A stretch of 64,000 nt of DNA from Paramacrobiotus metropolitanus (lineage: Eukaryota; Tardigrada; Eutardigrada; Parachela; Macrobiotidae): contig NW_026570221.1 in assembly GCF_019649055.1 (NCBI RefSeq), positions 3,038,001 to 3,102,000 of the forward strand, in the 5' to 3' direction. The position numbers and the translations under genes are program-made. Of the stretch, positions 22,789 to 63,802 are shown piece by piece. Below the pieces are notes generated by a model, which made no database searches, had not been told where the DNA came from, and saw only the letters and a list, made by a program, of their open reading frames with translations. The stretch's first letter is position 1; each line of letters starts with the position of its first letter.

Positions 22789-23036
22789 TTAGTACGGAAA
22801 CTCGGCAATCCAGTGTGGATCGTAATTCGGCCGCACGGGAACCTCCGTATATTTCGCCTTGTGTGCTTCGCAGAAATAAGTCTTGTAGTTAGCTTCTGGA
22901 GTTGTTTTTGGTGGAATCCGTAACATAACGGGACACTGTACTTCTCCGTCGATGCTCGGCACTCTTCCGATACACTGAACGGTCGTCGCGGCGGTATAGG
23001 CTTCCCACCATGTTGAACACCATCGGAACACTGCTC
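22789..23036 (-). CDS. Family-2 cysteine-domain exon (gene D), 5' exon not found
   Basis: A terminal exon of 248 bases on the minus strand: acceptor GACTATAG|GA at 23037, stop at 22789. It encodes about 82 residues with TTVQCIGRVPSIDGEVQCPV followed by MLRIPP, ANYKTYFCEAHKAKY and the end WIAEFPY. The core matches the intact family-2 gene at 48064-48329 (VQCRGFVPGSNGEVQCPVMI ... DFCESC), and the acceptor phase (1) is the same. The first exon, expected to carry a membrane span, must lie upstream on this strand, beyond the 134-bp satellite, and was not identified. Function unknown. Confidence 0.55.
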
Positions 23037-23164
23037 CTATAGTCTTCCGGAAAATCCCTGAACGGAAACGCTTATCATAGACAAAAAACCTTTTGTTCTA
23101 GTGAGAAAATTAACGGTTACCAGCTACTCGGTTCCAAAGTCTTAGCGCAAGTACTCTGTATATG

Positions 23165-24072
23165 AAACGTCTAACGATATTTTCGCTTGTCGTACAGACT
23201 GTATATGGCTCGTTAGTTTTGGAACACCATGTGGATCGCAGCGTTATTCACAGTACGTTTTAGTAAGGAGCCATATACAGTCTGTAGACTGTATATGGCG
23301 AAAATATCTAACGATATTTTCGCTTGTCGTACAGACTGTATATGGCTCGTTAGTTTTGGAACACCGTGGATCGCAGCGTTATTCTCAGTACGTTTAGTAG
23401 GAGCCATATACAGTCTGTAGACTGTATATGGCGAAAATATCTAACGATATTTTCGCTTGTCGTACAGACTGTATATGGCTCGTTAGTTTTGGAACACCGT
23501 GGATCGCAGCGTTATTCTCAGTACGTTTTAGTAAGGAGCCATATACAGTCTGTAGACTGTATATGGCGAAAATATCTAACGATATTTTCGCTTGTCGTAC
23601 AGACTGTATATGGCTCGTTAGTTTTGGAACACCGTGGATCGCAGCGTTATTCTCAGTACGTTTTAGTAGGAGCCATATACAGTCTGTAGACTGTATATGG
23701 CGAAAATATCTAACGATATTTTCGCTTGTCGTACAGACTGTATATGGCTCGTTAGTTTTGGAACACCGTGGATCGCAGCGTTATTCTCAGTACGTTTTAG
23801 TAAGGAGCCATATACAGTCTGTAGACTGTATATGGCGAAAATATCTAACGATATTTTCGCTTGTCGTACAGACTGTATATGGCTCCTTAGTTTTGGAACA
23901 CCGTGTGGATCGCAGCGTTATTCTCAGTACGTTTTAGTAAGGAGCCATATACAGTCTGTAGACTGTATATGGCGAAAATATCTAACGATATTTTCGTTTG
24001 TCGTACAGACTGTATATGGCTCCTTAGTTTTGGAACACCGTGGATCGCAGCGTTATTCTCAGTACGTTTTAG
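23165..24072. repeat. 134-bp tandem repeat with two hairpins per unit
   Basis: About seven near-identical units of 133-137 bp (GTGGATCGCAGCG at 23231, 23366, 23499, 23634, 23768, 23905, 24040). Each unit holds two stem-loops back to back: GCCATATACAGTC-TGTA-GACTGTATATGGC and GCGAAAATATC-TAAC-GATATTTTCGC, then a third half-copy ACAGACTGTATATGGC. Units differ by single bases and by small changes of length. Both strands show long spurious frames. Confidence 0.9.
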
Positions 24073-24519
24073 ATTCTGTATAGCAACAATTTCGTATTTT
24101 TACTACAGTGTACGGAAACGGAGCAATTAATATTGTCATTCATTGAGCTGAGAATCTTCGTGTATAGTAACGTATCATAGTCTCGTTCTTTAAAGCATCT
24201 TGCGGGATGGATGCCCTTTGTCTGCTGACAATCGATTTTTTCCAAGGTCCGTAAACCTACTTGGACTTTCGTTCAAATGCCCTTGGGATGTGCATAGCTT
24301 TATTTGGTTTAAATCTGTTTCTTAGTAGCATTTCGCAGCAGACTGTGTGTAAAAAGGTTATCGGTCCCGTTTACAATGCCTAGACAATGCAAACGGGATC
24401 GAATAACAGACCTGTTCCATCGTATTACTTGCAAAGGTTAATATGATTCAATTCAAACCATCGTATTACTTAATGTGTTAATGTAAACCAATGTCATCCA
24501 TCGTAGTACGTGCAGCATA
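24073..24519. other. Spacer between satellite and MITE copy 2
   Basis: No exon is seen. A short direct repeat of CATCGTATTACTT with TTAATATG/TTAATGT-type sequence occurs around 24415-24490. Confidence 0.4.
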
Positions 24520-24672: not shown

Positions 24673-25034
24673 ATTCGTTGGAGCACGCACGGACGCACGG
24701 ACGCACGGATGGTCATTTTATCATTGAAACTAAATTAACAGAAATTAAACACCGGCTTTTAGCTAGCTGGTGTGTTAGAACATTACGTACATGGGCGGAT
24801 TTTCCAGTTGTTTAATCTGTTGCTGTAACTTATAAAGGTCGAAAGAACGTTGAAATGTAAAAAAAAAATACGTACAGCAACAGATTTCTCCGATCGAGCG
24901 TACGATGAAGCATACAACAGCATACGGAGAAGAAAAAGTTGATCCGCGGGCATGTTTATTACTGCTGCGGAAGCGAGTATCCGGTGATTCCATTGCGACG
25001 AACCAGCTGAGTAACCTCCGCCAATCCATTCCTA

Positions 25035-25490: not shown

Positions 25491-25520
25491 AAACAATATA
25501 CGTAAAAACAGGCTAGAAAG

Positions 25521-25718
25521 TTAAATGGTATTTGCGGAGCATGTTTTCGTGTCCTTGGCTCTAATCTGGATCCTCGGCAGCCTACCGTTGCCTTTAGGAA
25601 CAAAGATTATTTCTGCGCAGTTCAACTGCCCGTTCTGCTGCTCGTAAACACCTTCCTGGCATTTTGGATCTGAGTCATCGTTCAGCATTCCTTGAATGGC
25701 AACAAACAGGAAAATAGT
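25521..25718 (-). CDS. Family-2-like cysteine-domain exon (gene E)
   Basis: An exon-like frame of 66 codons, acceptor GACGTAG|ACT at 25719 and stop at 25521. It begins with a hydrophobic stretch (TIFLFVAIQG) like the end of a signal peptide, then NDDSDPKCQEGV, a QNGQLNCAEIIFVPK core and TKTCSANTI. The spacing C-x13-C-x25-C with an N/D-G-E/Q turn before the second Cys is that of family 2. The complementary strand also has a short hydrophobic frame (25524-25643) ending at a GTAAAC donor, so the strand is not certain. The upstream exon with the start codon was not found. Confidence 0.4.
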   Translation of the reverse strand, partial: TIFLFVAIQGMLNDDSDPKCQEGVYEQQNGQLNCAEIIFVPKGNGRLPRIQIRAKDTKTCSANTI

Positions 25719-26350: not shown

Positions 26351-29300
26351 ATGGGTGGAGAAATCCTCAGTATGTTGATGTTCGGAATAGTGCTGACTGG
26401 GATATCTTGCACAACACAGGGATCGAGCGCCATGCCCCCAGTTCAACCATCTACTGCCTTGTGCAGCCAGCCGGATCCGTTGACCTCCACCGCCGAACAG
26501 GTTCAAGTGGTTGCCGAGTGCGTCATAGCCATGAGGTAAAAACTAAAACTGACAAAAGTTGTTTAGTCCGTTTTCCATGCTGCTTGTAGCTGTTCCGACC
26601 AGCGTATCATGAGAACAGCAAAATTGCACATTTGTCCCAGGGTGGCTTTGCTGTTCCTAATCTAAATTTTAGTTTGGGATCTTTGTCGTGTATATATAGG
26701 ACGATTTACTAGTAAATGTCTGTTAAGCTGAGACAGTGATCTCGTGCTTTTCCCGCTTCTGGTAGGGATTTACATAACGGCTCTGGTGATCTTTCGGTTG
26801 TTTTTTATATGCAGTACATACTATACTAGCAATGCAAACTCTGTACTATAGGGGGCAAAACTAAGCGTGTTCCACGGTTCCCCTGCATTGCTGCCGTCAC
26901 CCGCCTGGAGCGTGACGTTACGGCAGTACATATGGTTAAATCTGGCGCGGTACATAAGCACCATGTTTAGCCACAACGTAAAACTCCAGCCGGGTGACGG
27001 GTTAGTGAATACCCAAACTACCACCAGTAGCACAAAGCCGCTACGTGAGTGAATACGGTAATTAAACGGGCTGCGGGCCGGCTTTCAGATATTTAGAAAT
27101 TTAGATAAATAATAGAACAGATGCTTTAGATTGTGAGATATTGAGATACTCAGATTTCTAGATATTTTTATAATTTCGAAACTCTGGAGACTCAAAAAAT
27201 TAGAGGTAACGGCCCAGTGCAGCGGGGCCGAGCCGAAATATTTAGAAATATTTCAAATTTTTGGAAATGTAAAAGCTTTTGAGCCGACTTTGGAAAAATT
27301 TATGGTTGAGGTATTCGAACGGATTTAAAAACATCTTAAAGTTCCAAGAATTTAAAGAAATAAAATTATAAGTTTGATGTAATAAATGTACTAAATAAAT
27401 TATAAGTACTAAAATTATAAGTCAGTAAGTTAAGTAAGTAAGTAATAAAGGCTCCATATGAGATCAGTAACCCCTTAATGTCCAAGCGTACGCATTTTTG
27501 CGCAGCCTACAACACTGCTACTGTAGAACATCAGAAAACGGGTGTACTGCTCTGATTAGCGATGCAATGCACTTGATGTTGTGCCCTTGGCGAACACTGC
27601 GAACGCTGCGATTATAGGAAAACGACCTGCCACATATAGTAGTGCAAAAATTATGTCTATCCTTTGCACTGTAGGACACAATTTGTAGGACATAATATTG
27701 TAGACGCTCTTGGCAAACCGCAGCAATGTTGGCTTCGTAGTACGTGAGAACTTGAGCGTTTTGGCCGTACAAAAAATTTTTATTACTAATTGTTATTACT
27801 AACATTAATATAAGTACTTATCAGTTATTCATTGATACGACCACCGCGCTGTTGTGCATCTGCTACAGACTACTTTAGTACGCAGTTTACATATTTGTTA
27901 TAATGGGATTTAGTTTACGCTATCATACTGTTTGTATAATCGTTATTTAATTTTATATCTTGTTTATTTTCCGAATTATGCGGTGATACATACTTAGGCT
28001 ATTTAAAGTATTACTGCTCATTGCTTTAATCCCTACTCAGCATGATTATTTAAAAATCAGTACCAAGCAATTCAATAATTACAAATATATTCGTATTACT
28101 TTGTATTAACTGTAGCAGTGGCAGTACTAGTACCAAGTACATACGCTAATGTCACATAAACTGCTGTCCTAACCAGTAATCCAATATTCGCACGTATTCG
28201 CCAGATTCGCCAAGTTCAAATAAAGGTTACAACTTACAATGTATCCAGGATACGATAACATTATTACACATTTGGTACTCGTACGTAAATACGTCTAACC
28301 AATTTACTAACAGATCAATTTATTGATTAACCACGTCAAATACAGGTTTCGAAAGAAAATCCGCACAAATTTTTATAACTGGATCAGCAGTAAAAGGCAG
28401 TGCTGAATTAGCAATAAACAGCAGTTAGCAGCCACCTTGGCGAACTGTGCGAATGCTGCGAATATGGGGAAATCAAACGCGGCATATCTCCACTGACTTT
28501 AAGTGCCACCATGGCGAACTGTGCGAATGCTGCGAATATGGGGAAATCAAAACCAGCATGCATTCAGTGAACTCAACAGCCTCCTTGATGAACTGTGCGA
28601 ATGCTGCGAATATGGGAAAATCAAACGCGGCATATCTACACTGACCTCAAGTGCCACCGTGGCGAACTGTGCGAATGCTGCGAATATGGGAAAACCAAAA
28701 CCGGCATACATTGAGTGACTTCAACAGCCTCCTTGGCGAATATGCGAATGCTGCGAATATGCGAACATTAAACGCGGCATATCTACACTGACCTCAAGTG
28801 CCACCTTGGCGAACTGTGCGAATGCTGCGAATATGGGAAAATCAAAACCGGCGTACATTGAGTGACTTCAACAGCCTCCTTGGCGAACTATGCGAATGCT
28901 GCGAATATGGGAAAAATCAAACCCAGTATATCTCCACTGACTTTTAGTGCCACCATGGCGAACTGTGCGAATGCTGCGAATATGGGGAAATCAAAACCAG
29001 CATGCATTCAGTGAACTCAACAGCCTCCTTGACGAACTGTGCGAATGCTGCGAATATGGGAAAATCAAACGCGGCATGTCTACACTGACCTCAAGTGCCA
29101 CCTTGGCGAACTGTGCGAATGCTGCGAGTATGGGAAAATCAAACGCGGCATATCTACACTGACCTCAAGTGCCTCCTTGGCGAACTATGCGAATGCTGCG
29201 AATATGGGAAAATCAAACGCGGCATATCTACACTGACCTCAAGTGCCTCCTTGGCGAACTGTGCGAATGCTGCGAGTATGGGAAAATCAAACGCGGCATA

Positions 29301-32300: not shown

Positions 32301-34966
32301 AAATTTAAGTACTACAACTTTCAAAAATTCATGATACGCCGGCGATTAAGTGATAAGTACTGTGGGTACTAGATACCGTACTACTACTTACTGCAACCTA
32401 GCAAAGTACTACTACACTGCTACATTTAAGTACTACTACCTTTAAGCACTAAAAACATTTAAGTACTACAGCTTTTAAAAATTTTTTTAGACCTTCTTCA
32501 AAACTTGAGAGTTTTTTAGAGATAAAAGTAGGAACGTTTGTGCGATGCTCTACTTTATAAAATTATCAACTTATTGAAAAAATCAATCCTGATTTAGGAG
32601 ATAATTTTCAAAAAATAAAGACGTAAGGATATGTAATGTATTAATCTCCTTAATTTTTCTTTTTGTTTTTCTTTTTCATATTTTCAGTGTAACTTTATAT
32701 TGATGATCTAGCCAACTCAAAACTTTATTTTTTTGGTACGACAGATAGTATTTAAACGGTGATAAAATAGATGGCGTGGGATCACTTACACGATGCCCAT
32801 AAAATACCATTAAGCCGATATTTCGGCGCAGAATTAATGAAACTTGTGGGAAACCATAAACAGTTGCTCAAAAGTGACCTCGCAGACTGCATCTTTAGCT
32901 ACTAATTGCAAGATTTGGTAGTGTATTATAATATATTTAGTAGTGTATTAATATTATATTTATTTGGTGATAAAATGGATGGCGTGGGATTAGCTACACC
33001 ATGCCCTTAAAACACCATTCAGCTGACATTTTAGCGCAGAATTAATGGAAACTTGTGGGAAACAATTGATAGTTGCTGAAAGTAACCTCGCACACTGCAT
33101 CTTTAGCTACTCACTGCAAGATTTTCAGCCATTCAGCCAGCTGTTCACTATTTAAAAAAATAAATTAAATACAGATTTATTAGATTTAGAGGTAGAGATT
33201 AGTGAATACTGAATACCTGCGCTGCCATAGATATCAGTATACAAAGTAACGTAGGTTAGTGAATGCCCAGGCTACCACCAGTACCACAGAGCCGCTACGT
33301 TAGTGAATACAGGAAGATAACGGGCCGGGGGCCGGCTCTTAGATATTTAGGAATAATTAGATACTCGTATAAATTAGACACTTCAGACCGTGAGATATTG
33401 AGGTACTCAGATTTCTAGATATTTTCAAAATTTAGAAACTCTGGAGGCTAAAAATATCTAGAGGTAACGGCCACGCTGCGCGGGGCCGAGTCGAAATATT
33501 TAGAAATTCTTGAAATGTAAAAGCTTTAAAGCGGGCTTTGGAAGAATTTATAGTTATTTGGAGGTAATCGAACGGATTTAAGAACGTCTTAAAGGTTTCA
33601 AGAATTAAAAAAAATAAAATTGTGTTTGATGTAATTGGCAGTTTTAAATAACTATTGTTTAAGTTGCTAAGTTGCGAACTCTCTAGAAGCTAACAGCATT
33701 TAAGCACTACAACCTGTAAGTACTAACAACCCTTAAGTATTACAACTTTTAAAAAAATTTTTAGACCTTCTCCAAAACTTAAGATTTTTTTAAAGATAAA
33801 GGTAGGAACGTTTATGCGATGCTCTATTTTATAAAATTAACAACTTATTGAAAAAATGAATGTTGATTTAGGAGTTAATTTCCAAAACTAACAACCTTTA
33901 AGTACTACCATCCCTTAAGTACTGCAACTTTTTAAAATTTTTTAGACCTTCTCCAAAATTTAAGATTTTTTAAAGATAAAGGTAGGAACGTTTGTGCGAT
34001 GCCTTATTTTATAAAGTTATCAACTTATTGAAAAAATCAATCTTGATTTAAGAGATAATTTCCAAAAAATAAGGACGTAAGGATATATGAATCTATTGAT
34101 ATGCTGTACACACATCGTGCAGTATACGTACCACTATCCAAGCTTCTCCCGTAATTTTTACCGTAAAGGTACAGATGAAAAAAATTGAGAGCGAAAATTG
34201 CGCTATAAACGGTTTCCATTACACTATCTGTACGCCTGCACAATGACCTCTTCAGATTTAAAATAATTTGGTTAACGGAAGTTAATATTTTATCATTTTA
34301 ATCGCTAGTTTATAATTTAGTATGAGCCATGCCAAATGCATGTATTCTTGTAGAGCACATAAAACAATGATGGGCTGCTTCTTACCTTAGAAATACGTAT
34401 TATATCCAAAGTAATTTCCAGCATAAATATAGCGAACCAGTGCAGTTGTTCAGACGAATGCGAACGCGTTCTCTGCGAACAATCGCAAGTAATAATAAAT
34501 TTTTACCACAACCTTCTGCTTCAGCGCCCATCTGCAACAACTGGCCCACGGGATTCCCAGTCACACCCGCAAGACATCATGGCGCCCTATCGAAGCACTA
34601 CGATCGGCATACAGTATCAGCGCTCCTGCGGTTGATAACTCTGCTCTTCAGCCGGTCAACACTAGGCCAGTTGCCCCCGTCGTTCCCTCGGGGTACGTCC
34701 AGTATAACGGGCCTCCCCCATCTTCATGGGTACAACGCCAGCTGGACCAGTGGAAATGCTTCATGTGCTGCCATCCGTTTGCAGTCGGTTTGGCACTGAG
34801 CATTGCAGCCTCCCTCATACTGGACATGGTGCGACGAATTTTTGCCGGATCTGCGAATCGGAGTGTCCAGACCAGGCAGACCCTGTGGAGAACTGTCCTG
34901 CGAATAACACTGCTGGATGTGCCGCTGACCGCTCTTCTCTACTGTCTGCTTACCTGGTATTTTTAG
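26351..34966 (+). CDS. Family-1 membrane protein, gene 6, with ~8-kb intron
   Basis: Exon 1 at 26351-26535 has a signal peptide (MGGEILSMLMFGIVLTGISC), a proline-containing segment and two cysteines (ALCSQPD and AECVIAM), ending in phase 2 at ATGAG|GTAAAA. The only downstream exon that fits is 34525-34966: acceptor TTCTGCTTCAG|C, phase 2, starting AHLQQLAHGI (compare NFRRLADAI), a Pro/Ser stalk (NGPPPSSW), a Trp/Lys/Cys patch (QWKCFMCCHPFAVG), then two hydrophobic spans with a basic loop and end LLTWYF. The loop motif EKRSxRGR is not kept. If joined, the intron is 7989 bases and holds the satellites and the 30-kb foldback element. Both exons fit the family on their own; pairing them is inference. 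Confidence 0.5.
26889..27000. repeat. Imperfect inverted repeat
   Basis: CCGTCACCCGCCTGGAGCGT at about 26894 is opposed by a complementary segment ending in CCGGGTGACGG at about 27000, with GTACATATGG / GTACATAAGC near the centre. It would form an imperfect hairpin of about 110 bases. It adjoins the dispersed repeat beginning near 26998. Confidence 0.5.
26998..27385 (+). repeat. Dispersed repeat, copy 1
   Basis: Aligns with 33253-33635 in the same orientation over about 385 bases: shared ACCACCAGTA, AGCCGCTACGT, a GGGCCGGC core, TGAGATATTGAG, CTCAGATTTCTAGATATTTT, AGAGGTAACGGCC, GGGGCCGAG and GAATGTAAAAGCTTT-type segments, then CGAACGGATTTAA. No protein is encoded. The copies bracket the satellite-rich interval. 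Confidence 0.75.
27386..28428. other. AT-rich spacer
   Basis: No gene is seen. A single copy of the satellite motif (CTTGGCGAACACTGCGAACG at about 27588) occurs here, in the same orientation as the 74-bp array at 28.4 kb. Confidence 0.5.
28429..29868 (+). repeat. 74-bp tandem repeat, about 19 units
   Basis: Each unit carries TTGGCGAACTGTGCGAATGC followed by TGCGAATATGGGAAAATCAAA and a variable half. The period is 74 bases, so each unit shifts the reading frame and all three frames stay open, giving many overlapping 65-71-codon frames that are not genes. Unit variants recur at spacings of 444 and 666 bases (6 and 9 units: 28503, 28947, 29613), a sign of higher-order structure. The last unit is cut at about 29868. 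Confidence 0.9.
30028..30784. mobile_element. Foldback element with TATAGGCACCC sub-repeats
   Basis: About 135-150 bases at each end are inverted copies made of repeated TATAGGCACCC(C) and GCACCCCGT units (30034-30165 and, as complement, 30645-30775). Outer ends both read CACTATAGGCACCC. AAATAAA lies just outside each end (30021-30027 and 30785-30791), a candidate target duplication. The interior contains an open frame at 30222-30509 on + without a recognised domain. Composite sub-repeat arms are the mark of Foldback-type elements, as at 21143-22437. Confidence 0.65.
31236..31790 (+). repeat. Diverged tandem array related to the 74-bp satellite
   Basis: About six units of 80-100 bases with CTTGGCGAACGCTGCGAATG and GAATATGGAAA followed by segments such as AGACGCAGCACGCAGTTCGG. 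The GGCGAAC...TGCGAATATGG core is shared with 28429-29868 but the rest of the unit differs. The last units are weaker and closer to the 74-bp type (ACTTCAACAGCAGCCTTGACG). Confidence 0.75.
32450..34085 (+). repeat. Nested direct duplications
   Basis: A ~170-base repeat with TTTAGACCTTCT, AGGAACGTTTGTGCGATGC, ATCAACTTATTGAAAAAAT and GATTTAGGAG occurs at about 32450-32640, 33718-33880 and 33890-34085. Between these, a separate ~160-base unit is tandemly duplicated at 32757-32915 and 32969-33126 (GGTGATAAAATAGATGGCGT, GCAGAATTAATG, CATCTTTAGCTACT). The dispersed repeat copy at 33253-33635 also lies here. No gene is supported. Confidence 0.75.
33253..33635 (+). repeat. Dispersed repeat, copy 2
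   Basis: Same-orientation copy of 26998-27385, about 6.2 kb downstream, with similar divergence along its length. Confidence 0.75.
34115..34250. mobile_element. Partial MITE copy 3
   Basis: CAAGCTTCTCCCGTAATTTT, TAAAGGTACAGAT and TTGCGCTATAAACGG align with the forward strand of copy 1 at 7462-7560 (TAAAGGTACAGATAG, TTTGCGCTATAGCG). The right end is missing. Confidence 0.5.
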
Positions 34967-36222: not shown

Positions 36223-36235
36223 AGACCATAGCATA

Positions 36236-37351
36236 ATGGGTAATCGGTGCGTGGAAAGTTGTCTCCTGCTGTGGGCGGCACTAACAGGGATAGCGGCATG
36301 CCGTAGTGACAACGTAACCGTTACAAATCACACTACTGTTCCTGCAGCGTGCCCACCGCTGAATTGCTCACTGCCCGCCGCGGAGCACATCTTGGCGCTT
36401 ATCGACGAGATGAAGAAGCTCAAGTAAGCAAAAGAAGTAATCTTTCCATGTTCTTACTACAAATTTCAACCAAAATGGTAACCTTTTTTTTTCTTTTTTT
36501 TTGCAATTAACAACTGACCCTACTTCGTAACAGACTGTAACATTTAACATATGTTCTATCATCTCCGTTAACCAGCTTCGTCCGTTATTATTTCAATCAG
36601 CAGTTAACGCCAGTTTGCTGAACGTTGTCATTTTTAGCATTGTAAACGCTTTATCTGTTTAGTCACCTCTCGAAAACATTAAGAAGCACTATTAAACCCT
36701 CTCATGATAACATCTTACGGGCGTCAGCAGCTGAATTTTAAACATTTTTTTCCAAACAATTATTTACTGTATTTTTGGTTACTTAATCCAGACGCAATCT
36801 TTTTCCGTGGGTTATAACGCATAATTATGCGAAATTATATTGTTTTGTAGAAGTATGTAACAAAAGTGCTTGCAAGATTTTTCCCGAATACGAAACCATC
36901 AATCGTTTTATATTTCTGCAGTTGGTTTTTAAAGCAAGCACTGGATATTGACTCGAATGACTCCACCAAAGAATTTACTAACGAAACACCTCAAACGTCC
37001 GGTCTTCGCTCGTTCCCCTTTTCCAAGTCCACCATCGTTACGCCCGCCGCCGTTGCTCATGCTCACGAGCCGCACGACAGCGGCGTGACTCGTCCACGCT
37101 CGGGAATCGTCACGCGGGCGGTTCTCCATGGCCTGGATAACTTTGTCTACAACCACACCATCCTCTTTATCGTCCTGCTGGTCATCGGAATGGTGCTGCT
37201 GCTATTAGTGCTCTTCTTTACTCTGGCCGCCCTCATCGACGCCATGCTGGAACGGGATCTGCGGGGACGCCTGCAGCTGGCCGGTCGGATTATCATCGTG
37301 TTCCTGGCGGGCGGCGTGGTGGCTGACGTCTTTCTTCACCGTTGTTCATGA
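36236..37351 (+). CDS. Family-1 membrane protein, gene 7 (distant member)
   Basis: Exons 36236-36423 and 36922-37351, phase 2 (CTCAA|GTAAGC ... TTCTGCAG|T). The signal peptide MGNRCVESCLLLWAALTGIA leads to three potential N-glycosylation sites (NVT, NHT, NCS) and cysteines at CPPLNC; the second conserved Cys is absent (LPAAEHILALIDEMKKL). Exon 2: NWFLKQALDI in the helix position, a stalk with little proline, a His-rich part (AHAHEPH), VYNHTILF in place of AEQHPFF, a strong first span, loop DAMLERDLRGR and a second span. The loop, the shared phase and the layout make membership convincing although overall identity is low. AATAAA at 37417. Confidence 0.7.
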
Positions 37352-44400: not shown

Positions 44401-45951
44401 AAAAATTTCATAAAATAAATTTAAGACCTTACCGAAAATGTTTCTTGTATGGAAATACTTAAATTTATATTTATTCATAAAAATTATATTAATAATATAA
44501 TAATTTATATTACATTTATTAAATTATTTTCAGTTTCTTGTATACTAAAATAATTCAATAAATTATTTGCTATTATGAAAACATTTTGACAAAAAAGGAG
44601 AAATCTTTTTAATAATTCATGGTCAATGAAATCAGTTTGTTCATCACAAGCTGTGAAACAAAAAATCTATGGATTTTTAAATTAAGCGAGGTGCCGCTCA
44701 TATTATACAGTTTGCGACGGATTAATTTCTTTCCTTTCCATAAATTATTTAAATATATTTAAATAACTTATGGAAAGGAAAGAAATTAATCCGTCGCAAA
44801 CTGTATAATATGAGCGGCACCTCGCTTAATTCAGGCGCGGAAGTGATAAAGTGTTATGTTTATCCTGATTTGCTTGGCACTAAGTTAAACATTAACGGGA
44901 ACATTCAAATTACACCCAGCAATAATTTCACACGAATAATTATGTTGCCATTTATAACTAGCATAACGTCGTATATAATAATCGATAACGTAACGCACAT
45001 ATGTAGACTACATTGCGTTGTGCTTTCAGGGTTATTAGACGCGGGTGCCCTGGCGATTTGGCACGGTGTGGATTACATGGAGACCAAGCGCATGCAGTTT
45101 CCCACCAATGTATACTACACATACCGCACCTGGCCTCCGGTGCGTATTATTAATTTATTAATGACGGTCTCATTAGTACAATCGATGCTAATCATGTTAC
45201 TTTATATAATCCGTTATTTTATTACGTGCTTTTATTCATGCTGTTCTCTCACCTTTCCTTTATAAAAACCGTTGTATAACTGTTGCTTAACGTTACAATA
45301 TCAGGCGCATGACCATTAAAAGCCGCTTGAATTTTGTCAAATTTTATTGTTATTATAAACATTATATAACCAAGGCGTCAGCTTTATTATTCTTTTATTA
45401 AGTTTATGAATGTAAATGATGACCCCACAAATAAAAATAGACAAAAAAATGAAAAGGAGAAAACAAATTTTAAAACAACTGGAAAGAGGTGTTTTACAAA
45501 TTTTAATTGTAATAAATCAAAGAAATTTTTAAGGATTAGTTTACAAATAAAGAATTCTGTGCTCCGGGAAAAACGATTTCTCAAAGCTTTTTTCAAACCG
45601 AAGGTCATCTGCTCTACGTATTTTTAAACATTATAGTTTTGATAATGATTTTTGATAAGAAAATAACAACATTTTTTCTATTTTTGGCAGATACTACAGC
45701 AGTACACCACGCGGAACTACAGCTGGTCGTTTATGCTGGCGTGGATCGGCTGCGGGATGGCACTGGTGTCGGCCATGTTCCTGTTGGGCGGCGCAGCCAG
45801 TCTGCGAGCTGAGCGCCGTCGCGAGAAGGAACGCAATGCTCAATACATGCTGCCGGTGTACGGGAATTACGGAGAGAAGAATGCGCCCTACTACGCACAC
45901 GCCTATCCGGGACCGCACTATTACTACAGCTCTAACAGCTATCGTTATTAA
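38476..45951 (+). CDS. Claudin/PMP22-superfamily four-span protein (stargazin/TMEM178-like)
   Basis: Six exons: 38476-38731, 43755-43856, 44147-44284, 45030-45139 and 45691-45951 account for the coding part in five pieces, with phases 1, 1, 1 and 0, so the coding exon count is five; any 5' non-coding exon would be a sixth. Span 1 (LSLGTICGCIAVACVAIAFS) precedes STDNWLEY. The first outer loop has the superfamily signature IGLWRICFP plus a later Cys (DTSCVNVDYPKD), which form the conserved disulphide. Span 2 MRTILALFIAGFAMELLSFF, span 3 PGLLVTTGTFMILAC and following, then RNYSWSFMLAWIG leads into span 4. The tail is Arg-rich, then Tyr/Pro-rich (YYAHAYPGPHYYY). About 288 residues. GLW-C-C and the YSWSF approach to span 4 favour CACNG/stargazin or TMEM178 relatives over true claudins. 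The first intron is 5 kb of AT-rich DNA with no other gene. Confidence 0.8.
44680..44831. repeat. Near-perfect 152-bp palindrome in an intron
   Basis: The left arm begins AATTAAGCGAGGTGCCGCTC and the right arm ends with its complement. The 76-base arms differ at a single pair near the centre (TAAATT versus AACTTA). The central ATTTAAATATATTTAAAT is self-complementary, so there is no spacer. It lies in the claudin-like gene intron 44285-45029. An open frame from 44810 starts inside it and is not a gene. Confidence 0.9.
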
Positions 45952-46319: not shown

Positions 46320-47056
46320 GGGTTGAACATTATTCCCGAGTGAAACCTGGAAAAGTAGAACCCAGAGGTCACAATAACGCGTCACAGTGTGGCAATAATG
46401 CTGCCAGGAGAAAATTAATCCTTGGCCTTGTTGACAATTGCAGGTGCGATGGGATCAAAGAGCCAGAGTATAACCATTAACCATAACAATAGCTAATGCA
46501 ATCTACTTAACTGTGCATGTGGTAATAACAACCCTAGATTTCTCCAGAAATGTGCGTCTGCGGTGGGAGGTCATTTAATCCGACAGAATTTTTTGCGCTG
46601 TTTTCGACGCAAAGCTGGCGGGCACAAATAGGGCAGTTCTATTGAGTGACTGCCTTATCACCGCTTTACACAATGCCGGTCAGAGGTATTCGTGCCTGCT
46701 GTGTTCTCTCTCCATTCTCCATTACGCTGCGTAAGCCGATATTGCCACAACAGGTAGGCATGAAATTAGCCTCAATGTCTTTCATCCATTGAATGTCCCG
46801 GGCCGGGAGAATCGAAAAAATCGTAACTAAAGACGGGATAAGGTCACGACCAGCCAACAGCAGCGCGGAGGATCGTATATTTAATTGATCTGTTCCGGCG
46901 CCACGCAAATCCGTCCAGTGCATTACGTTTATTCTTGGCTGTTGTCGGCAACTCTAGTAAAGTCATTTGGACTGCCATTCGGACTTTTAAAGTGGTGACC
47001 TTTACCAGCCAGCCCCTTCGATTATATTGTATCTGTTTCTTGGGAAGTTCGTTATC
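46320..47056 (+). repeat. Upstream region of the family-2 locus, copy A
   Basis: This stretch is repeated at 61510-62227 (copy C) and partly at 60140-60640 (copy B). Shared blocks include ACGCGTCACAGTGTGGCA, AATGCTGC.AGGGAGAAAAT, ACCCTAGATTTCTCC.GAAAT, GGTGGGAGG and CAGCCTCAATGTC. In A and C it runs to the start codon of a family-2 gene, so it probably contains the promoter. Confidence 0.75.
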
Positions 47057-48329
47057 ATGACGCTATCAGAAATTTTCGGTTGGATGGGTGATGCTTTTGT
47101 CAGTATTGCAAGTGCAGCTACGGGTGCGACACGGGAGCAGGTGAAGGCTGTTATCCCGCCAATATCCGTGATATGTATAATCGTGGCCCTTGTCGTCACA
47201 GTTTTAATATGTAAGTTTCCTCAAAGGTAATTTTTTCGAATAATTATACTTTATTTCTGGGTAGTTATTTAGCTGCTGTTATAGTCTCGAAAATTAACCG
47301 GCAATGTTTACCTATTTTGCCGTTATGTTTTAAAGTTAGCCTTGTAGCAGACTAACACTCAAATGTTTTCATAGTAAATCTCTACTGTAGAGCCTATTGC
47401 TCTTTATTAAGCTGGATTGCACGACATGTTTACTGCGCGTAATATTCGCCGGTTTCCTTGAAACAGCTATCAAGTTTGCCACCAGTTGAAGCGCACTTTG
47501 AATAAGTTTTTTAAACTTAAAAATTTAGATCATTTTAGTTAGTAATGTACACTATAGGCACTTATTTAAGGCACATTGTTGCGGCACCTCACGACTTTAC
47601 GAAATAGAAAACTTGTATACTCGCCGTGGGCACATTTTCGCATTGTAAGCACGTATGCTATTTATTTACTATTAGTACGTCATATTATTCGTCTTCTGCG
47701 TCACAGCAGATGAACTAGTGTTCTGTTATCTGCCTGGCTAGTGCCCGTAATTTTAAGAGTATGGTATTTGTTTTGATATACTTAATTATCAGTGATCACT
47801 ATCAGTGAGATTATTATATTATTGTTGCTTTATTCACAATATGTTACGTTATTCACAATTCGGGTTATACAGATACGGTATGTGTAGTTATTGTATTAGT
47901 ATGAAAAAGTTTTCTTTATAATTACAACATTTTTTGATTAGCCTAAGTAAGCGCATGTGAGTGAATGGGTAGCGCCTAAGTGAGAAATCACATCTGTGTA
48001 ATTTATGCAGCAAAACGGTTTGCAGCATCTCTAGTATTTTATGCAACGTTGCACTGTTAACAGGCGCAAATTGGAGTGCCATCAAGCCGGTTCTATTAAG
48101 CTGCATTCGGAGCTGCAAGGCAAAATACCCGTCTAAAGTCCAATGTCGTGGATTCGTGCCCGGCAGCAATGGGGAGGTCCAGTGTCCTGTAATGATACCA
48201 TACATACCGCGTGCCCAGGTGTCAACGAAAATCCATAAGGGGACATCGGAAACCGGTGACTACAGGGCCGCCCGCACAGATTTCTGTGAGTCATGCCAGC
48301 GCTCCCGCGCAAATATTCTGCCAGTTTAG
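47057..48329 (+). CDS. Family-2 membrane protein with cysteine domain, gene A (intact)
   Basis: Exons 47057-47210 and 48064-48329, phase 1 (AATAT|GTAAGT ... TTAACAG|GC). About 139 residues. An N-terminal helix (MTLSEIFGWMGDAFVSIASA ... TREQVKAV) is followed by one span (PPISVICIIVALVVTVLI) at residues about 33-51. Exon 2 is a cysteine-rich domain with Cys at about 52, 65, 69, 79, 92, 126 and 129: SCIRSCKAKYPSKVQC, RGFVPGSNGEVQCPVMIP, then ETGDYRAARTDFCESC. The same core occurs at 22789-23036 and, broken, at 63477-63802. With one span and no cleavable signal peptide, either orientation is possible; paired cysteines suggest the domain is outside. No named family recognised. The conserved donor, acceptor and phase in both copies support the model. 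Confidence 0.65.
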
Positions 48330-50871: not shown

Positions 50872-53800
50872 CTATACAACATTAACATATGCAGACTGCA
50901 CGATCCATTCGCTGAAAAGGTCGTCGACCTTGAACCAGCACTGATAACGGCCTTGGTCCCTCCTTTGCACTGGGTCGAGACGCAGGGTCGAGCGGCATAA
51001 GCAGGCTCCTTCACTGCTGAAAATCTCGACCCCCGGCCTCATGCGAACATCGCGTTTGAACGCCGGCACTCCGGAGGCGTAGATAAGGTCTTGTTCGTCT
51101 CGCCACATGAACCGCATCCCAATACCACGATCACCTGCCGGCATGGCATCGAATTTCACTTGGCAGTGAAGCTCTGCGGTCGCGCCCAACTTGGCCGTGG
51201 CATTTGTCATGGGCTGCTGGAAAACTTGTTGGGGCAACAGACGGGGACTGATCAAGTATCTGCGAAGTAGTCTGGATGAGAATTTGTACAAACACGCCTG
51301 TATGATGAGCAGAGTTCACAGACAATGTAAACTTTCGCGCGAAGCAGGAAGACGCTCTTGCTTTGAAAATTGTGATTTTTACGAATTTCTTGTAAAATCT
51401 TTCTTGGAGCATATTTAATTGATAAATAAGTAATGGACTCATGCTCAACGATACAAAAGACATTCCAAAAAATTTTTTCCATAATTTGTATCTCAAAAAT
51501 ACTACTGCAAAAATAATTTTCCTTCGAAGACGCATTCAGCTTTTGTTAGCCATATTATAAGAAACGCCTTTCATTACTAAGAAACCGAAACGAAACATGG
51601 CTCCAGCCCACTCCAATAAAAAAAAACCTACGGAGAAAACCATGGACGGTCTTTCGCACTTTTTCTCGTGATAATTTTGCAATTTTTATTAATCACCTCG
51701 CCAACTTTTTGAGAAGCATTAGAATGTTAGAAATTCTTTCCTCTTACAAAATTTTTTTTCAAAAGAATAACGTCCTTAAACCGCTTTTCAGGAAAAATCG
51801 AAGCTGTCAGGGAAAAGGAGAAAAAACAAAGATTTTTGGCATACTTACGGCAAAAAAATGACAAACCGTCAAAGGACAAATACGTCAAAGAATTTATCGT
51901 TGTGGGTAAAAAGTAAACTTCTTTGATAACTTAGACGCGCATGAGTGGCCATAACATGCGCTTTCTTTTAATGCGAAGGATGACGTATTCGCAAAAGCGA
52001 GAAGGCTGAAAACAAAAAATTTAAGTGTCCTACGAAAAAAAAAGTTTATCTTAATCTCTGAGCTCTCAAAGCGTTCCGCTAACACCGTAATAACACTAAC
52101 ACTTGTTGCAGTTGATATTTGAAAGCAATCATCGAAATAATTGCAAAGGCGAGACTGGCACAAAAAGACTTGAAAAACTGCAAAAGCACCTCAACGATTT
52201 CGGTCTCTCGTTTTCCCTTTTCTCCACTCAAGCTTTAAGTTTTTCTGATAGCTTACATAATGGTTTATGCAAGAAAAATATAGCATTTCTGTACTGTTCC
52301 AAATGACCGAGAGGTAAATCAGGGAAAGCTATTTTTGGAATGTGTTTTGTACATGTATATACTATGGAATTCGATGAACTCCTGGCGCATAGATTACAGA
52401 TTCATTCATTTAAGTATGTTTGTGAAGCAGCTACTTTTGCGCCGACAGAGAATCTTACATTCGGTCTTACAGCAAATATCGCTAGAAGTTCAACAAGAAA
52501 AGAGTAATTTCTCCGATTTTTTGCACAAATTTTTGCTCTTTTTCTATCCGGTTCCAGCCACCAATGGCAGGGAAATGTGCGAAACGAAGCTCGCTTACAG
52601 TAGCCTTCAAAAATAACTTCAAATAAAATTTTGGTGAACTGGTCCCGTATCATGCAAATGACAAGAAAAATATACACAAAATTAATCACAGAAGGCTCTG
52701 GCGCTACGTACCGATTGGTTACCCTAGCTTTCCCGTTGACCGTGTGTAGACATTCGTACGACCCGGAAAGATAATGCGAGAAGTTGAAGAAACCGAGATA
52801 GTACGGTGGCAGGGCGGGGTCCTTCAGCAAAGAGATTTTTGACCTCCAGATAGCGGGCGGGACAATCTTGCAACTACAGTGATGTACTAGTTTCGGCTGC
52901 TCATGTATTCTTCTATCGTTAACCGATAGCTGTCGGCCATTGTATCGGATTAGAGGGTGTTGTGCCAGGGTTTCGTCACCACAGGGGAGTGTCACGTTTC
53001 CGCCTTCCGGTTCTCGGATGACAACAAACCCAGCCGTCTGATTTGGCAACGGGAACGGCTGGTCAGAGGTCGGAATCTCCAGACGCACCACGCCGTCTTG
53101 GCTGCTTTTCAGAGCTTCGTCCATCAACTGCAGCGCTGTAGGTCAACGATAGATGGTTGAAGCAGAAATTGGGGAGACACATTGACGTATTTGACATATA
53201 TAGTAAACACCAGCCCCACACCAACGACAACACTTCACACTGAAAGCAATTTGAAAAAAATTATTTTTGAACTTTCCACACTTTTTTCCAAGTGTCAGTA
53301 GTGCAATAACTTAGTGAAATGCTAAGGCTTGTCCCGAATTCAAAGCGAATCTCGTTGTGGTACGGTTGCAAAACCGCACGAGGTGGCTGTATGCAGTGGC
53401 CACGCCTAGAGATACGGTACGCGAAGCCACCTCGCGAGGTGGAGTTGCTGTATCGCAACGAGATTCGCTTTCAATTCGGGACGAGGCCTAAGACAACTAC
53501 TGTAGTGCTAGTGTTGTGGCTCTAAAAACGAATCATCCACGATAAAACATTGTACGATGAGCGCTTGAGCGGCGATTTGGCAGTTCCCATTACAGTAATT
53601 CAGGGAAACACTTCGCAAAATTCTCAGCTATAGTTTTTCGCTTTACGCAGCAGCTATATTTCTTCGCTTTACGAAGGACATCAAGATGTAAGAAACCAGT
53701 TCTCTACCTTATGTTTTCCAGCTGATAGTTCCAAATTTGTCAGAAAAACGTATTTCAAGGATGTTAAACGAAAAGCAATTTGAAAGTGTCACTACTGTCA

Positions 53801-59669: not shown

Positions 59670-60139
59670 AATATTATGTGACCGAGACGGCCAGCTGACT
59701 ATCCGTTGCTAATTAGCAATGTGACTGACGCGCTCCTCATCTACCTCAAGGGTTCAGTTCAAATTTGTAAAAACGAAAGATTCAATGGGATGATAAAAAA
59801 GAGTCGGATGACATGCAGGCAATGTGATAAACAATAATATGCATAACTGCATCCACCTTTTTGCCGGAACAGTGACGGCATGCATTAATTCTCACAATGG
59901 GCCTGAATGCACTCAATGATGCCAATGTTAGATCAATCGACACCGACGGGTCGATTGGGCAGAAAGGTGGATGCAGTCCGGGAAAAAAGGGGACGGCTCA
60001 TCCACCAATCTGCCGAAGGTCGGCAGATTAGTGGCTTTGATTTCATTGAACATCCACCATCCACCCATCCACCTTTCTGCCGGCTTCACCTATTTTTCAT
60101 GTAATCCCGCACGTTTATTGTTGATTTGAACATTATTCT
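59670..60139. other. Spacer with short inverted segments
   Basis: No gene. TCCACCTTT.TGCCGG occurs in both orientations (near 59850, 59965 and 60070), flanking CCAATCTGCCGAAGGTCGGC; this may be a small inverted-repeat element. Confidence 0.35.
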
Positions 60140-60640
60140 TGTTTATTTCTGAGAAAGAATCAACCACAAAGGTCACCGTAACGCGTCACATGGTGGCAAT
60201 AATGCTGCAGGGAGAAAATTAACCCTTGTTGACGAGCGCAATTGCGATAGGATCACAGAGCACCACCAAAACAATATCTAATACAATCAAAACCGTTGCA
60301 ATAACAACCCCAGATTTCTCCAGAAATATGTGTCAACGGTGGGAGGACATTTAATCCGGCAGCAATGTCTTGCGCTGTTTTCCGCAAAGCTGCCTCTTCG
60401 GTCAGAGCCTCAGAGGTAATCGCGCCGATCCCTCTTCATTCTCCATTCCTTTGCGCAATCGGATATAGCCAAAACAGATAGGCTTGATATCAGCCTCAAT
60501 GTCCATAATCCATGGATTGTCCACAGGGACACGAACAAAATTGTAACCAAATACGAAGTACGTCAAAACCAGCCAACAACAGCGCGGCGGATGGTATTAC
60601 ATTAGGTATTACTAACGTCTGCGCAGCTCATTAGGGACAA
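60140..60640 (+). repeat. Upstream region of the family-2 locus, copy B (truncated)
   Basis: Aligns with 46320-46870 and 61510-62040 (GGTCACCGTAACGCGTCACA, CCCCAGATTTCTCCAGAAAT, CAGCCTCAATGTCC, CAGCCAACAACAGCGCGGCGG), but the match ends near 60610 and no family-2 start exon follows. Confidence 0.7.
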
Positions 60641-61509
60641 ATTACAATATAATCACCCAGTGCGTTAAAAACAGCAGGAAGCCTAACAGTGCAAAGTTAG
60701 CAAAGCAAGGGCCGCGCGTCATCGAAGTAGTTGGCTAATGTGGTTTATCAGCCAAATGTGCGCTGGTCTAAGTGCATGTTTACAGCTTTATCCTATCGCT
60801 TAATTGGACTACACCGGAGCCAATATGCTAGTTTTTTCGTTTTCCGTAAGAGGAGACAATTCATATCTCCGCTTTCACCGGCGGCCGCACCGGAGATGGC
60901 CGGCAAAGCCCATAGCCATGCGGATTCGTCTGAATTTACAGGATTTATGTTAGAACGTATGAGAAACATAGCGCCCTAAAAAGTGTTCCTTGTTGCGCCT
61001 TGCGATCACCGTCATACTGCTGATTTATCATACGAGTAGTGACAGCCGGCTACAATTCCCACCTTTGCAAATAAACACTTATCTGTTGTGCGCATTTTTG
61101 TTTATAATGGGCAATGGTGGCAATGTTGGTGGACCTCGCCGGTGGTGGTGGATAATGCTGCCCATTACTCCAGCACATTAGTCTTGGAATTGCGCGCTCC
61201 CCACTCTTTTGAATATAATTGTGCGACGTAAAAAAATACTAAAAAACTAATAAAAAACCACAACAAAAGCAATCAGAAAGCTAAGAAACCTTAGACCCTG
61301 ATCGAAAAGCTAGATGTATGTCAACAAATACCATCCGTAGGAAGCCGGGCAGCGAAAGTTTAGATTCGCGAATTATCGGTCAGCATTCTTTCGGCCACGG
61401 TCAGCAGGTTGTTTAAATCAGCAGATTTTCGGGCACCAAAACGGAAGTCAGCAAACTGACGTGCCACCCGGCAAATTATATTTTAGTTCGTGACTTTGCC
61501 AATAGTCTT
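60641..61509. other. Spacer between copies B and C
   Basis: No gene is supported. Frames at 60731-60979 and 60990-61181 lack paralogues; the second, with a hydrophobic start (LRLAITVILLIYHTSS), has no ATG. Confidence 0.4.
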
Positions 61510-62227
61510 GTTTATTTTTGATTGAACGTAGAAAAATTATGGGTCATAAGACGAAGGTCACATTAACGCGTCACAGTGTGGCAGTAATGCTGCAGGGAGA
61601 AAAATAATCCTATGCCTTGTTGACAAGCGCAGGTGGGGTGGAATCACATAGTCATAACTCATAACCAAAGCTAATGCAGTTGCTTAACTGTTGTAATATC
61701 AACCCTAGATTTCTCCGGAAATGTGCGTCCACGGTGGGAGGACATTCAATCCGGCAGCGATTTTTTCGCTGTCTGCCGCACAGCTGGTGGGCACAAAATA
61801 GGGCAGCTCTAGTGAATGAAAGGGCCGTATTACCGCTCTACACAACGCCGGTCAGATACCCTGCTGCTGTGTTCTCTCCATTCTCCATTCCTTTGCGCAA
61901 TCGGATGTAGCCACAGCAGGTAGGCGTGAAATCAGCCTCAATGTCCATAATCCATTGAATGTCCCTGGAAATCGAGAATATCGTATCCATAGACAGCTCA
62001 GGTCAAGACCAGCCAACAGCAGCGCGGCGGATCGTATTTTTGATTTTTACCAGATCACTGTTAGCATCATGCTAATCCGTCCAGTGCAATATATTTATTC
62101 CTGGCAATTGCCGGCAACTCGAGCAGGGTGGTTCAGTAGCCATTTGCATTGTCGTAGCGGTGAATTTTTACTAGTCTGCCTCTTTGATTAGATTTGGCAG
62201 GAAACAATCAATCTCTTTAGAATTATC
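61510..62227 (+). repeat. Upstream region of the family-2 locus, copy C
   Basis: Same-orientation copy of 46320-47056, about 15 kb away, continuing to the ATG of the copy C gene. The equivalence of both flank and gene shows the whole locus was duplicated as a unit. Confidence 0.75.
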
Positions 62228-63802
62228 ATGACTTTGACGAAGATTTATCGGATTATCGAATTCAGTAAAAATTTCCGTCAGTGTCATGATAATTCCAAAC
62301 CTTCGAATTTGTTGGAAGACGCAATGGTCATTATTGAAAGTGCAGCTAAAGATGCCATACCGGAGCAGCTGATGGCTGCCATAACGAAGGTACCTGTTAT
62401 ACACCTCTATACGAAGGTACCTCTATACGAAGGTACCTCTATACGAGGTGCTCTTGTGGTTAAAATTCTCATTCGTAAGTTTCGTCAAAAGTATTTCGAA
62501 TAATTATGTTTTATGTTTCATTTTTGGGTAGTTTGGTAACTGAATTTATGCATCCCAACTTAACCAACAAAGTTCACCTTTTTGTAGCCATTAAGTTTTG
62601 AAGTAAGCGTTAAGGCAGTCACACAATTTCGTAGTCATTGGTAGTGCCTATGCTTAAATTCTGGTTCCATAACATGTTTACTGCGCGTAATATTCGCCGG
62701 TTTCCTTGAGAGAGCATTCCAGTTTGACACTAGGCAAAGGGCTTGCGGAGGCTACCTTGCGAACACTTAGTACACGGGTAAAAGACGTTGCGTAACATTA
62801 GCAATTTTCCTGACCTTTTCAGAACAGAATCTTTGTATGTTCCCCGATGGCATGTTTTTGCATTAAATACCTGGTCATGAATAACGTCCGAACGTAAACT
62901 TGTTTGTTATTCATCTACTACTGCGAAGTCTTGATATTAATATTCCGCGTCACACCGGATGAACTTTTCTGTCATCTGATACTGATGCCCAGAGTTTTAA
63001 GAGTATGGTATTTGTTTATAGATACTGATTTACCAGTGATCCCTATCATTGAAATTATTTTATTTTTGTTGCTCTATTCACAGTATGTACATAAACCAGC
63101 TTCGCTCAGTTAAACTCAAATGAGTCAATTAATGAGAACTGGTTCCAAATACAAATAGGAGTGCACTAGCCACGCATAGCGTAAAATTATTATCTCTACA
63201 AAAATATTGCTGTAAGATTATTACAATATTTTTGGTTTGGTGCAATAAAAGTTTAGACTCCCATAAAGACTTGTGAGCGGAAGGTAGGACGTAATACATT
63301 TGCCTAAGGTATAGTATGAATACATAACATTTCCTTACAGTTATACGAGTACAAATATCTTTTGATAAGCTTAATTAAGCAAGTGTGAGCGAATGGACAG
63401 CGCATCTGCGTGACTCATGTAGTAAAATGCTTAGCAGCATCGCTAGCTTTGCTATGCGACATTGTACTGTTAACAGGCTGCAACTGGAGCGTTATCAAGG
63501 CTATTATAAAAGCTGGATTGGGAGGTGCAAGAAGAAAAACCCGTCTAAGATCCAGTATCGTGGCTTTGTGCCCGGCAGCCACGGGGCAGTCCGGTGTCGT
63601 GAGATGATACCGCTTATGTCGCGCGGTACAAATGGTATCATTTTGCCGCACCGGACTGCCCCGCGCGCGATGCAAGACGTCCACGGCAAACCGTCAGGAA
63701 ACCCTTGAAACCGGTGACTATAGGACTCAATTCACAGATTTCTGTGATTTTTGCACACCGCTCACTTGCACTAACCCCCAAAGTGGCGCGCTACATAAAT
63801 AG
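62228..63802 (+). pseudogene. Family-2 gene C, broken copy of gene A
   Basis: Exon 1 equivalent 62228-62474 keeps the start (MTL), the helix part (IIESAAKDAIPEQLMAAI) and the phase-1 donor (ATTC|GTAAGT). It has two rearrangements: an inverted duplication at 62221-62293 adding residues after MTLTKIYR, and a tandem repeat of TACGAAGGTACCTCTA at about 62384-62442 replacing the membrane span. Exon 2 equivalent starts at 63477 (TTAACAG|GC) with NWSVIKAIIK, then a 1-base loss relative to gene A near 63510 shifts the frame and brings a stop at 63606. The shifted frame still reads PSKIQYRGFVPGSHGAVRC. An inserted inverted repeat at 63585-63664 splits the domain; the remainder (ETGDYRTQFTDFCDFC) follows it. 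Confidence 0.65.
63585..63664. repeat. Inverted repeat inserted in gene C
   Basis: CGGGGCAGTCCGGTGTCGTG with following ATGATACC is opposed by GGTATCAT...CACCGGACTGCCCCG, about 30-base arms with a ~20-base loop. Gene A has only the first arm (GGGGAGGTCCAGTGTCCTGT...ATGATACC), so the second arm is an inverted duplication specific to this copy. Confidence 0.75.

What the first reader, a model, noticed from the sequence alone, without database searches (positions are those of the whole stretch)
22789..63802. Family 2: a cysteine domain VQC-x-G-x-VP...GEVQCPVM...FC behind a membrane span
The exon at 48064-48329 (+), 22789-23036 (-) and the broken copy at 63477 share a core of about 20 residues and a phase-1 acceptor. 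Weaker copies occur at 25521, 25353, 25035, 49506 and perhaps 59299. Both orientations and both sides of the window carry it, so it spreads and decays quickly.
Basis: partly seen in the sequence, partly recalled or inferred. Interest (0 to 1): 0.85.

Follow-up and report, generated by a model that had tools for sequence, protein, structure and literature searches.

The report
Decaying tandem orphan genes in tardigrade
A small gene family, found in one 44-kb stretch of what is very probably a tardigrade genome, has one intact copy, a distant relative and broken neighbours whose coding parts were overwritten by short mirror-image DNA copies; the family looks real but modest, and its function is unknown.

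Summary
The core observation holds. A small protein family is present: copy A (exon 1 47057-47210, exon 2 48064-48329, +), divergent D (22789-23036, -), broken B (62228-63805, +) and a further broken copy C just outside the window (64958-66644, +). A and D share a 20-residue core beyond chance (regional E 3e-6 to 5e-6; held-out profiles 19.7 and 26.0 bits, best unrelated scores 13.1 and 11.8). The "weaker copies" at 25521, 25353, 25035, 49506 and 59299 are not above background. The family does not spread: every match with E below 0.05 in 170 Mb lies within 44 kb of one contig. A, B and C are tandem copies of a 2-2.5 kb unit whose intron and upstream DNA are on average as conserved as the exons or more. 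Assembly size and longest contig match Paramacrobiotus sp. TYO (a tardigrade). Pfam, NCBIfam, PDB, prokaryote and viral contigs gave no relative. Best reading: a young lineage-restricted gene for a small single-pass membrane protein with four shared cysteines, in birth-and-death. Expression, fold and function are untested.

The parts
47057..47210 (+). Copy A exon 1: 51 codons plus one base (phase 1), hydrophobic span ISVICIIVALVVTVLI at the end, donor GTAAGT
   Evidence: RNA not tested
48064..48329 (+). Copy A exon 2: 87 residues after the junction codon, with VQCRGFVPGSNGEVQCPVM core and FCESC; stop TAG
46380..46990 (.). Upstream block of unit A: 457/577 identical to B, 389/553 to C; no frame open throughout in the copies
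22789..23036 (-). Copy D, exon-2-like: divergent member, four cysteines, open frame to a stop, phase-1 acceptor
24876..25029 (-). Candidate exon 1 for D (51 codons, moderate hydrophobic span, phase-1 GTACGT donor); unproven, tblastn with A exon 1 finds nothing here
62228..62473 (+). Copy B exon 1: open frame with insertions; best 17-residue hydropathy 1.15 (A: 3.08); inverted duplication over its start
63478..63805 (+). Copy B exon 2, frame lost; core carries an inverted duplication (end bound taken from the alignment)
62216..62299 (.). Palindrome at B exon 1 (arms 31, 84% paired), with an insertion relative to A and C
63582..63663 (.). Palindrome in B exon 2 core (arms 30, 83% paired), with an insertion relative to A and C
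60113..60597 (.). Unit U: copy of the upstream block only

Best explanation
A young, lineage-restricted gene family in a tardigrade (very probably Paramacrobiotus metropolitanus), evolving by local birth and death. A two-exon gene of about 2.2 kb was duplicated in tandem together with its upstream DNA and intron, giving A, B, C and a truncated U; D is an older, inverted and diverged relative 25 kb from A. The intact copy A would make a 139-residue basic protein: short N-terminal part, one membrane span at the end of exon 1, then an 87-residue tail; seven cysteines follow the span, four of them shared with D. Most likely (inferred) the tail is a small domain held by two disulfides, displayed at a cell or organelle surface where binding partners change fast; the part kept between A and D is a 20-residue core. 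B and C were damaged in large part by template-switch mutations that pasted inverted copies of the exon into itself. Shown: the family, its four copies, their confinement, homologous introns and upstream blocks, the breaks, the palindromes. Inferred: splicing, translation, topology, disulfides, surface role.
For: A-D similarity; held-out profiles give D 19.7 bits and A 26.0 bits, against 8.6 and 9.3 as best scores in 120 kb of other DNA of this genome and 13.1 and 11.8 as best unrelated scores in the 104-kb region. Of 20 core codons 14 encode the same residue and 8 of these 14 differ in codon, so the match is not a recent DNA copy. Donor and acceptor context kept in A, B, C. Tandem units. Only local copies. 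Span hydropathy 3.08. Palindromes: 5 of 13 in the 104-kb region lie in the 5.4 kb of B and C, one in each of their four exons, none in the A or D exons; alignments show an insertion in four and a replacement in one. Organism: against the G000 size and contig C1.
Against: Exons of A are no better conserved towards B and C than the intron (A-B: exons 0.64 and 0.69, intron 0.70; A-C: 0.60 and 0.59, intron 0.66; intron sub-blocks 0.54-0.80). dN/dS of 0.26-0.67 for A-B and A-C pieces overlaps the range that six frames of the upstream block give (0.45-1.95 over 36 frame comparisons), so purifying selection on A since duplication is not shown; for A-D synonymous change is saturated and no ratio can be given. 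Genome-wide the A-D match alone is borderline (E 0.008-0.014). No exon 1 for D is proven. No RNA evidence. The basic stretch after the span (5 K/R, no D/E in 25 residues) would by the positive-inside rule (recalled) favour a cytosolic tail, against disulfides. The palindrome enrichment was noticed before it was tested and disappears under strict pairing.
Confidence: 0.6

Rival explanations
1. The whole family is a relict: A is a dying copy too that happens to keep its frame, and D is the only older coding trace. The units persist as neutral tandem DNA.
For: Exons diverge as fast as the intron or faster; two of three full units are broken.
Against: A keeps both frames, span and splice sites over 139 codons; the A-D core is alike at protein level with codons changed.
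Confidence: 0.25
2. The selected element is the upstream block (a regulatory element or a gene on the other strand); Family 2 exons are passengers.
For: The block is on average the best conserved part of the unit and exists as a fourth copy U without exons; minus-strand pieces resemble each other across copies.
Against: The frames translated have stops or shifts in the copies, and per-frame dN/dS is scattered; D has the exon core, while the block search found nothing near D.
Confidence: 0.14
3. A mobile element that carries the cysteine exon around the genome, as the first reader's 'spreads' suggests.
For: Copies in both orientations, palindromes nearby.
Against: Single-locus distribution in 170 Mb, tandem arrangement, no Pfam mobility domain in the ten proteins scanned.
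Confidence: 0.03
4. Same gene family, but the tail is cytosolic and the four shared cysteines bind a metal instead of forming disulfides.
For: Positive charge on the C-terminal side of the span; D has exactly four cysteines, which align with cysteines of A.
Against: No CxxC pair is shared by A and D: A, C and (out of frame) B have FCxxC, D has FCEAH; Pfam lists no zinc finger for A, C or D.
Confidence: 0.2

Closest known systems
Lineage-restricted tandem gene families under birth-and-death (general kind; Drosophila Sdic, PMC7475035, and sea urchin Sp185/333, PMC5103432, seen only as listing rows with abstract starts)
   Same: Local tandem copies and fast divergence; segmental duplication of gene plus flanks
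   Different: Only one well-supported intact copy here; no sequence relation tested; function unknown
Template-switch mutations creating hairpins (Monttinen and Loytynoja 2022, PMC8794818: outline, abstract and opening text seen; PMC7954356 and PMC8604942: abstract starts in the listing)
   Same: Reverse-complement copy of an adjacent stretch replaces, or is inserted beside, the original and makes a palindrome
   Different: Here four of five events in 5.4 kb fall in the exons of two decaying tandem copies
Family 1 of the same region (signal-peptide-like exon plus proline-rich membrane exon)
   Same: Small membrane or secreted proteins in a tandem array on the same contig; 11 of 12 matches to the first exon lie in the array
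   Different: No significant similarity to Family 2 (best tblastn of A exon 2 in a Family 1 gene: E 0.12, in another frame); all 11 and 8 listed C1 matches are on the + strand, with one internal stop

Membership tests
Lineage-restricted tandem gene family (birth-and-death) | Copies are local duplicates of one unit including non-coding DNA | tested here: met
   A, B, C align over intron and upstream block; D only by the protein core
Lineage-restricted tandem gene family (birth-and-death) | Mixture of intact and broken copies | tested here: met
   A open in both exons, D open in its one known exon; B frame lost in exon 2, C stop in exon 1
Lineage-restricted tandem gene family (birth-and-death) | No relatives outside the lineage | tested here: inconclusive
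   none in Pfam, NCBIfam, PDB, viral or prokaryote contigs; no other animal genome could be searched
Lineage-restricted tandem gene family (birth-and-death) | Expressed protein under selection in the intact copy | tested here: inconclusive
   A-D core alike with codon changes, but A-B and A-C dN/dS overlap the non-coding control; no RNA
Template-switch mutation | Inverted copy adjacent to its source, as an insertion or replacement relative to a homologue | tested here: met
   4 of 5 palindromes contain an insertion relative to A, the fifth replaces the second half of the core
Transposable element | Dispersed copies in the genome | tested here: not met
   single locus (the tool scores only its best candidates)
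Known cysteine-rich extracellular domain (von Willebrand C or similar; lead recalled from memory) | Match to a Pfam domain model | tested here: not met
   only RTC (14.1 bits, cut-off 27) and DUF1289 (12.1 bits, cut-off 27) for A exon 2, nothing for D
Known cysteine-rich extracellular domain (von Willebrand C or similar; lead recalled from memory) | Fold | not testable with these tools
   structure prediction switched off

The most novel reading that the evidence does not exclude
The inverted duplications in all four exons of B and C are not idle decay: the broken copies are transcribed and their exon hairpins (58-84 bases) feed a small-RNA pathway that acts on the family, or the exons are a hot spot where template switching repeatedly rewrites coding sequence. 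Either would make this a short-hairpin route by which a tandem family silences or remodels itself.
Probability: 0.05. Interest if true: 0.72.

Novelty: new member of a known kind. Interest (0 to 1): 0.38.

Why it matters
If A is expressed, it is a very young membrane-protein family whose birth and death can be read in one locus, beside two other local tandem families (Family 1 and an immunoglobulin-domain family). The palindrome pattern is a clear case of coding exons being overwritten by short inverted copies; sequencing of more strains would show how often it happens.

Tried and rejected
Rejected: mobile element (single locus). Rejected as copies: 25353, 25035, 49506, 59299. 25521-25688 (-): the pattern C-x-x-G...G-x-x-x-C...P-K looks alike to the eye and its frame starts behind a phase-1 AG, but it gives 4.4 bits with the A/B/D profile and is not listed with the A/B/C profile; 22 of 2000 (against A) and 214 of 2000 (against D) shuffles reach its score; left open, not counted. 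Upstream block as a minus-strand gene: stops or shifts in the copies, dN/dS 0.45-1.95 over 36 frame comparisons; left unexplained. tblastx between units gave hits in all frames and did not discriminate; its output was cut. Rfam: 0 matches in the window at gathering thresholds. The Pfam lipocalin search, meant to find tardigrade SAHS proteins, gave 2 matches; the one read further is an ordinary fatty-acid-binding protein by PDB search and did not help to name the organism; the assembly statistics did.

Literature: for this family or tardigrade tandem or orphan families, searches listed 10 papers each, of 86, 1,001, 14 and 25,046 that held enough terms; no listed title or abstract start describes this family, which does not show that none exists. 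Passages of PMC11191345 (sex differences in P. metropolitanus, where 12 of 19 places were shown) do not name this locus, and its main text holds 'tandem', 'immunoglobulin' and 'transmembrane' 0 times. One search (template switching) listed 8 of 111.

Results against the palindrome reading: with arms of 14 at 90% pairing 1 of 22, and with perfect arms of 12 none of 19, lie in B+C. Control DNA is uneven: 5 of the 10 control palindromes sit in one 10-kb stretch (L026), so clusters do occur elsewhere and a Poisson tail overstates the case.
Full report
What the sequence is. The window is 64 kb of contig C1 (4,484,719 bases) of an assembly of 169,799,020 bases in 533 contigs. Paramacrobiotus sp. TYO (P. 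metropolitanus, a tardigrade) was published with 170,483,395 bases in 684 scaffolds, longest scaffold 4,484,941 bases and 43.46% GC (PMC8277472, passages read). The window has 42.2% GC, and 26 of its 32 2-kb bins lie between 40 and 47%. I take the organism as this tardigrade; it is an inference from assembly statistics, not a sequence comparison, and the contig count and lengths are close but not equal.

Checking the observation. The frames at 48064-48329 (+) and 22789-23036 (-) exist and both begin behind an AG in phase 1. Their similarity was measured four ways. (i) tblastn in the 104-kb region (window plus 10 kb before and 30 kb after): E = 5.5e-6 for A to D and 3.1e-6 for D to A. (ii) Genome-wide: 0.0136 and 0.0077; borderline alone, but D and A lie 25 kb apart in a 170-Mb genome. 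(iii) Held-out profiles: a profile of A, B, C gives D 19.7 bits; a profile of D alone gives A 26.0 bits. The best scores in 12 other 10-kb stretches of the genome are 8.6 and 9.3; the best unrelated scores in the 104-kb region itself are 13.1 and 11.8 (the A/B/C profile also hits the reverse strand of C with 24.5 and of B with 14.8 bits, because these copies are palindromic). (iv) 0 of 2000 shuffles of D reach the A-D alignment score. The match covers VQCxGxVPxxxGEVQCPVM, and then T.FCE. Of 20 core codons 14 code the same residue and 8 of these use different codons; since the alignment was found by protein similarity, this says that the two are not a recent DNA copy, not by itself that selection acted.

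The weak copies fail. With a profile of A, B and D, 60 Markov copies of the region give top scores of 6.1 to 13.4 bits; the 25521 segment scores 4.4. With the A/B/C profile nothing near 25521 is listed, and places within 250 bases of 25353, 25035, 49506 and 59299 score at most 2.3. One more copy, C, lies just outside the window at window coordinate 66378-66641.

Anatomy. Self-comparison and a three-way alignment show that A (46.3-48.4 kb), B (61.5-63.8 kb) and C (64.2-66.7 kb) are copies of one DNA unit: an upstream block, exon 1, an intron and exon 2. U (60113-60597) has the upstream block only. The donor GTAAGT and the acceptor context CTGTTAACAG are kept in A, B and C. A exon 1 gives 51 codons ending in a span with mean hydropathy 3.08 over 17 residues; joined to exon 2 it makes 139 residues, pI 9.2, with cysteines at 40, 52, 65, 69, 79, 92, 126 and 129, of which seven (52 on) follow the span. 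D has four cysteines, and the C-x12-C spacing of the core equals that in A. An exon 1 for D is not proven; one candidate (24876-25029, -) has the same length of 51 codons and a moderate span (1.54).

Broken copies. B exon 1 is open, but its most hydrophobic 17 residues average only 1.15, and B exon 2 is out of frame. C exon 2 is open to the same stop place as in A, but the second half of its core is replaced; C exon 1 has a stop.

Constraint. A is not more like B and C in exons than elsewhere. A-B: upstream 457/577, exon 1 98/154, intron 547/780, exon 2 181/264. A-C: 389/553, 87/145, 499/753, 157/265. Intron sub-blocks range from 0.54 to 0.80, and the 3' flank is 0.38 for A-B and 0.70 for A-C. 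dN/dS of the exon pieces is 0.26-0.67 for A-B and A-C, and the same method gives 0.45-1.95 over 36 frame comparisons of the upstream block. So constraint on A since the duplications is not demonstrated; the older A-D core is the only protein-level conservation, and there synonymous change is saturated.

Distribution. Genome-wide searches with A exon 2, D, A exon 1 and C find 5, 5, 2 and 5 matches at E up to 10, the query itself included; every one with E below 0.05 lies at C1:3,060,792-3,104,641. The four matches on other contigs have E of 0.09 to 2.7, and three of the four have internal stops. The upstream block hits only this locus. So the family is a local cluster, not a spreading element. 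The genome tool scores only its best candidates, so missing weak matches do not show absence.

Relatives. Pfam: nothing over cut-off for A, D, C or A exon 1; NCBIfam none for A or D; PDB none for D, and one chance-level match (E 1.7) for the profile; viral contigs and prokaryote genomes none confirmed. Other animal genomes could not be searched, so 'orphan' is only relative to these libraries.

Palindromes. Both broken exon-2 cores read backwards on themselves: C 66446-66508 (63 bases, arms of 29, 97% paired) and B 63582-63663; 0 of 200 shuffles reach either score, while the best in A and D are chance values (164 and 95 of 200). A scan for arms of at least 20 bases, 80% pairing and loop up to 40 finds 13 in the 104-kb region and 10 in 120 kb of control DNA. 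Five of the 13 are in the 5.4 kb of B and C: one in each of the four exons, and one upstream of C exon 1. In four of the five the alignment shows an insertion relative to A; in C exon 2 a stretch is replaced. With the background rate the four exons (1,046 bp as I bounded them) expect 0.08-0.09; a Poisson tail for four or more is 2e-6. This test was set up after seeing the pattern, and five of the ten control palindromes sit in one 10-kb stretch (L026), so the background is clustered and the tail is too small. The pattern is stable for loop/arm settings 60/16 (85%) and 100/25 (80%) and is lost with strict pairing (1 of 22 and 0 of 19 in B+C), as arms that have since mutated would give. The form fits template-switch mutation (PMC8794818, outline and abstract).

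Mechanism and verdict. The best-supported account is a young local family whose copies arise by tandem duplication of gene plus flanks and die quickly, here in large part by template-switch inverted duplications inside the exons. The protein of A would be a single-pass membrane protein; whether its tail is outside with disulfides or inside (the stretch behind the span has 5 K/R and no D/E in 25 residues) is open. A role at a surface with fast-changing partners is a guess from the rate of change and from the neighbours: Family 1, 11 of 12 matches in a tandem array on the same contig, and an immunoglobulin-domain exon at 50.9 kb with DNA copies further on. I score interest 0.38: real, with a neat decay pattern, but small, without expression data, and of a known evolutionary kind.

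Noticed in passing
62216-62299, 63582-63663; beyond the window 64799-64875, 65056-65113, 66446-66508: Short inverted duplications concentrated in the two decayed Family 2 copies, one in each of their four exons.
   Followed up: yes
2096-16301 (+), array begins before the window at C1:3,014,480: Family 1: tandem genes with a signal-peptide-like exon and a proline-rich membrane exon; 11 of 12 genome-wide matches to the first exon lie in this array, and 8 of 8 for the last exon on C1.
   Followed up: partly
50875-51315 (-), 52405-53142 (-): Immunoglobulin I-set-like exon (E 3e-5) with DNA-level copies at 71.6, 82.9 and 89.5 kb in window coordinates; the neighbouring 52405-53142 frame has no Pfam match but also has copies. 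A third local family.
   Followed up: partly
46380-46990, 60113-60597, 61555-62194: The upstream block is on average the best conserved part of the Family 2 unit, occurs once without exons, and has partly open minus-strand frames with a membrane-like end; nature unknown.
   Followed up: partly
23170-24072: Tandem array of a 135-base unit, 6.7 copies, 98% alike, with short internal palindromes by eye, between D and its candidate exon 1.
   Followed up: partly
44680-44831: Nearly perfect 152-base palindrome without loop (99% paired).
   Followed up: no
26423-26533 (+), 37043-37327 (+), 34499-34963 (+): The first two show weak similarity to Family 1 exons (E 0.27 and 8e-4); 34499-34963 is an open membrane-protein-like frame with no clear Family 1 match. 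Possible strays of the array.
   Followed up: no
12694-12741 (+): Eight residues DYRAARTD of A exon 2 recur in another frame of a Family 1 gene (E 0.12); probably chance.
   Followed up: no
19172-20086 (-): PIN-domain exon (Pfam PIN_4, E 7e-10), an ordinary conserved domain between the fast families.
   Followed up: no
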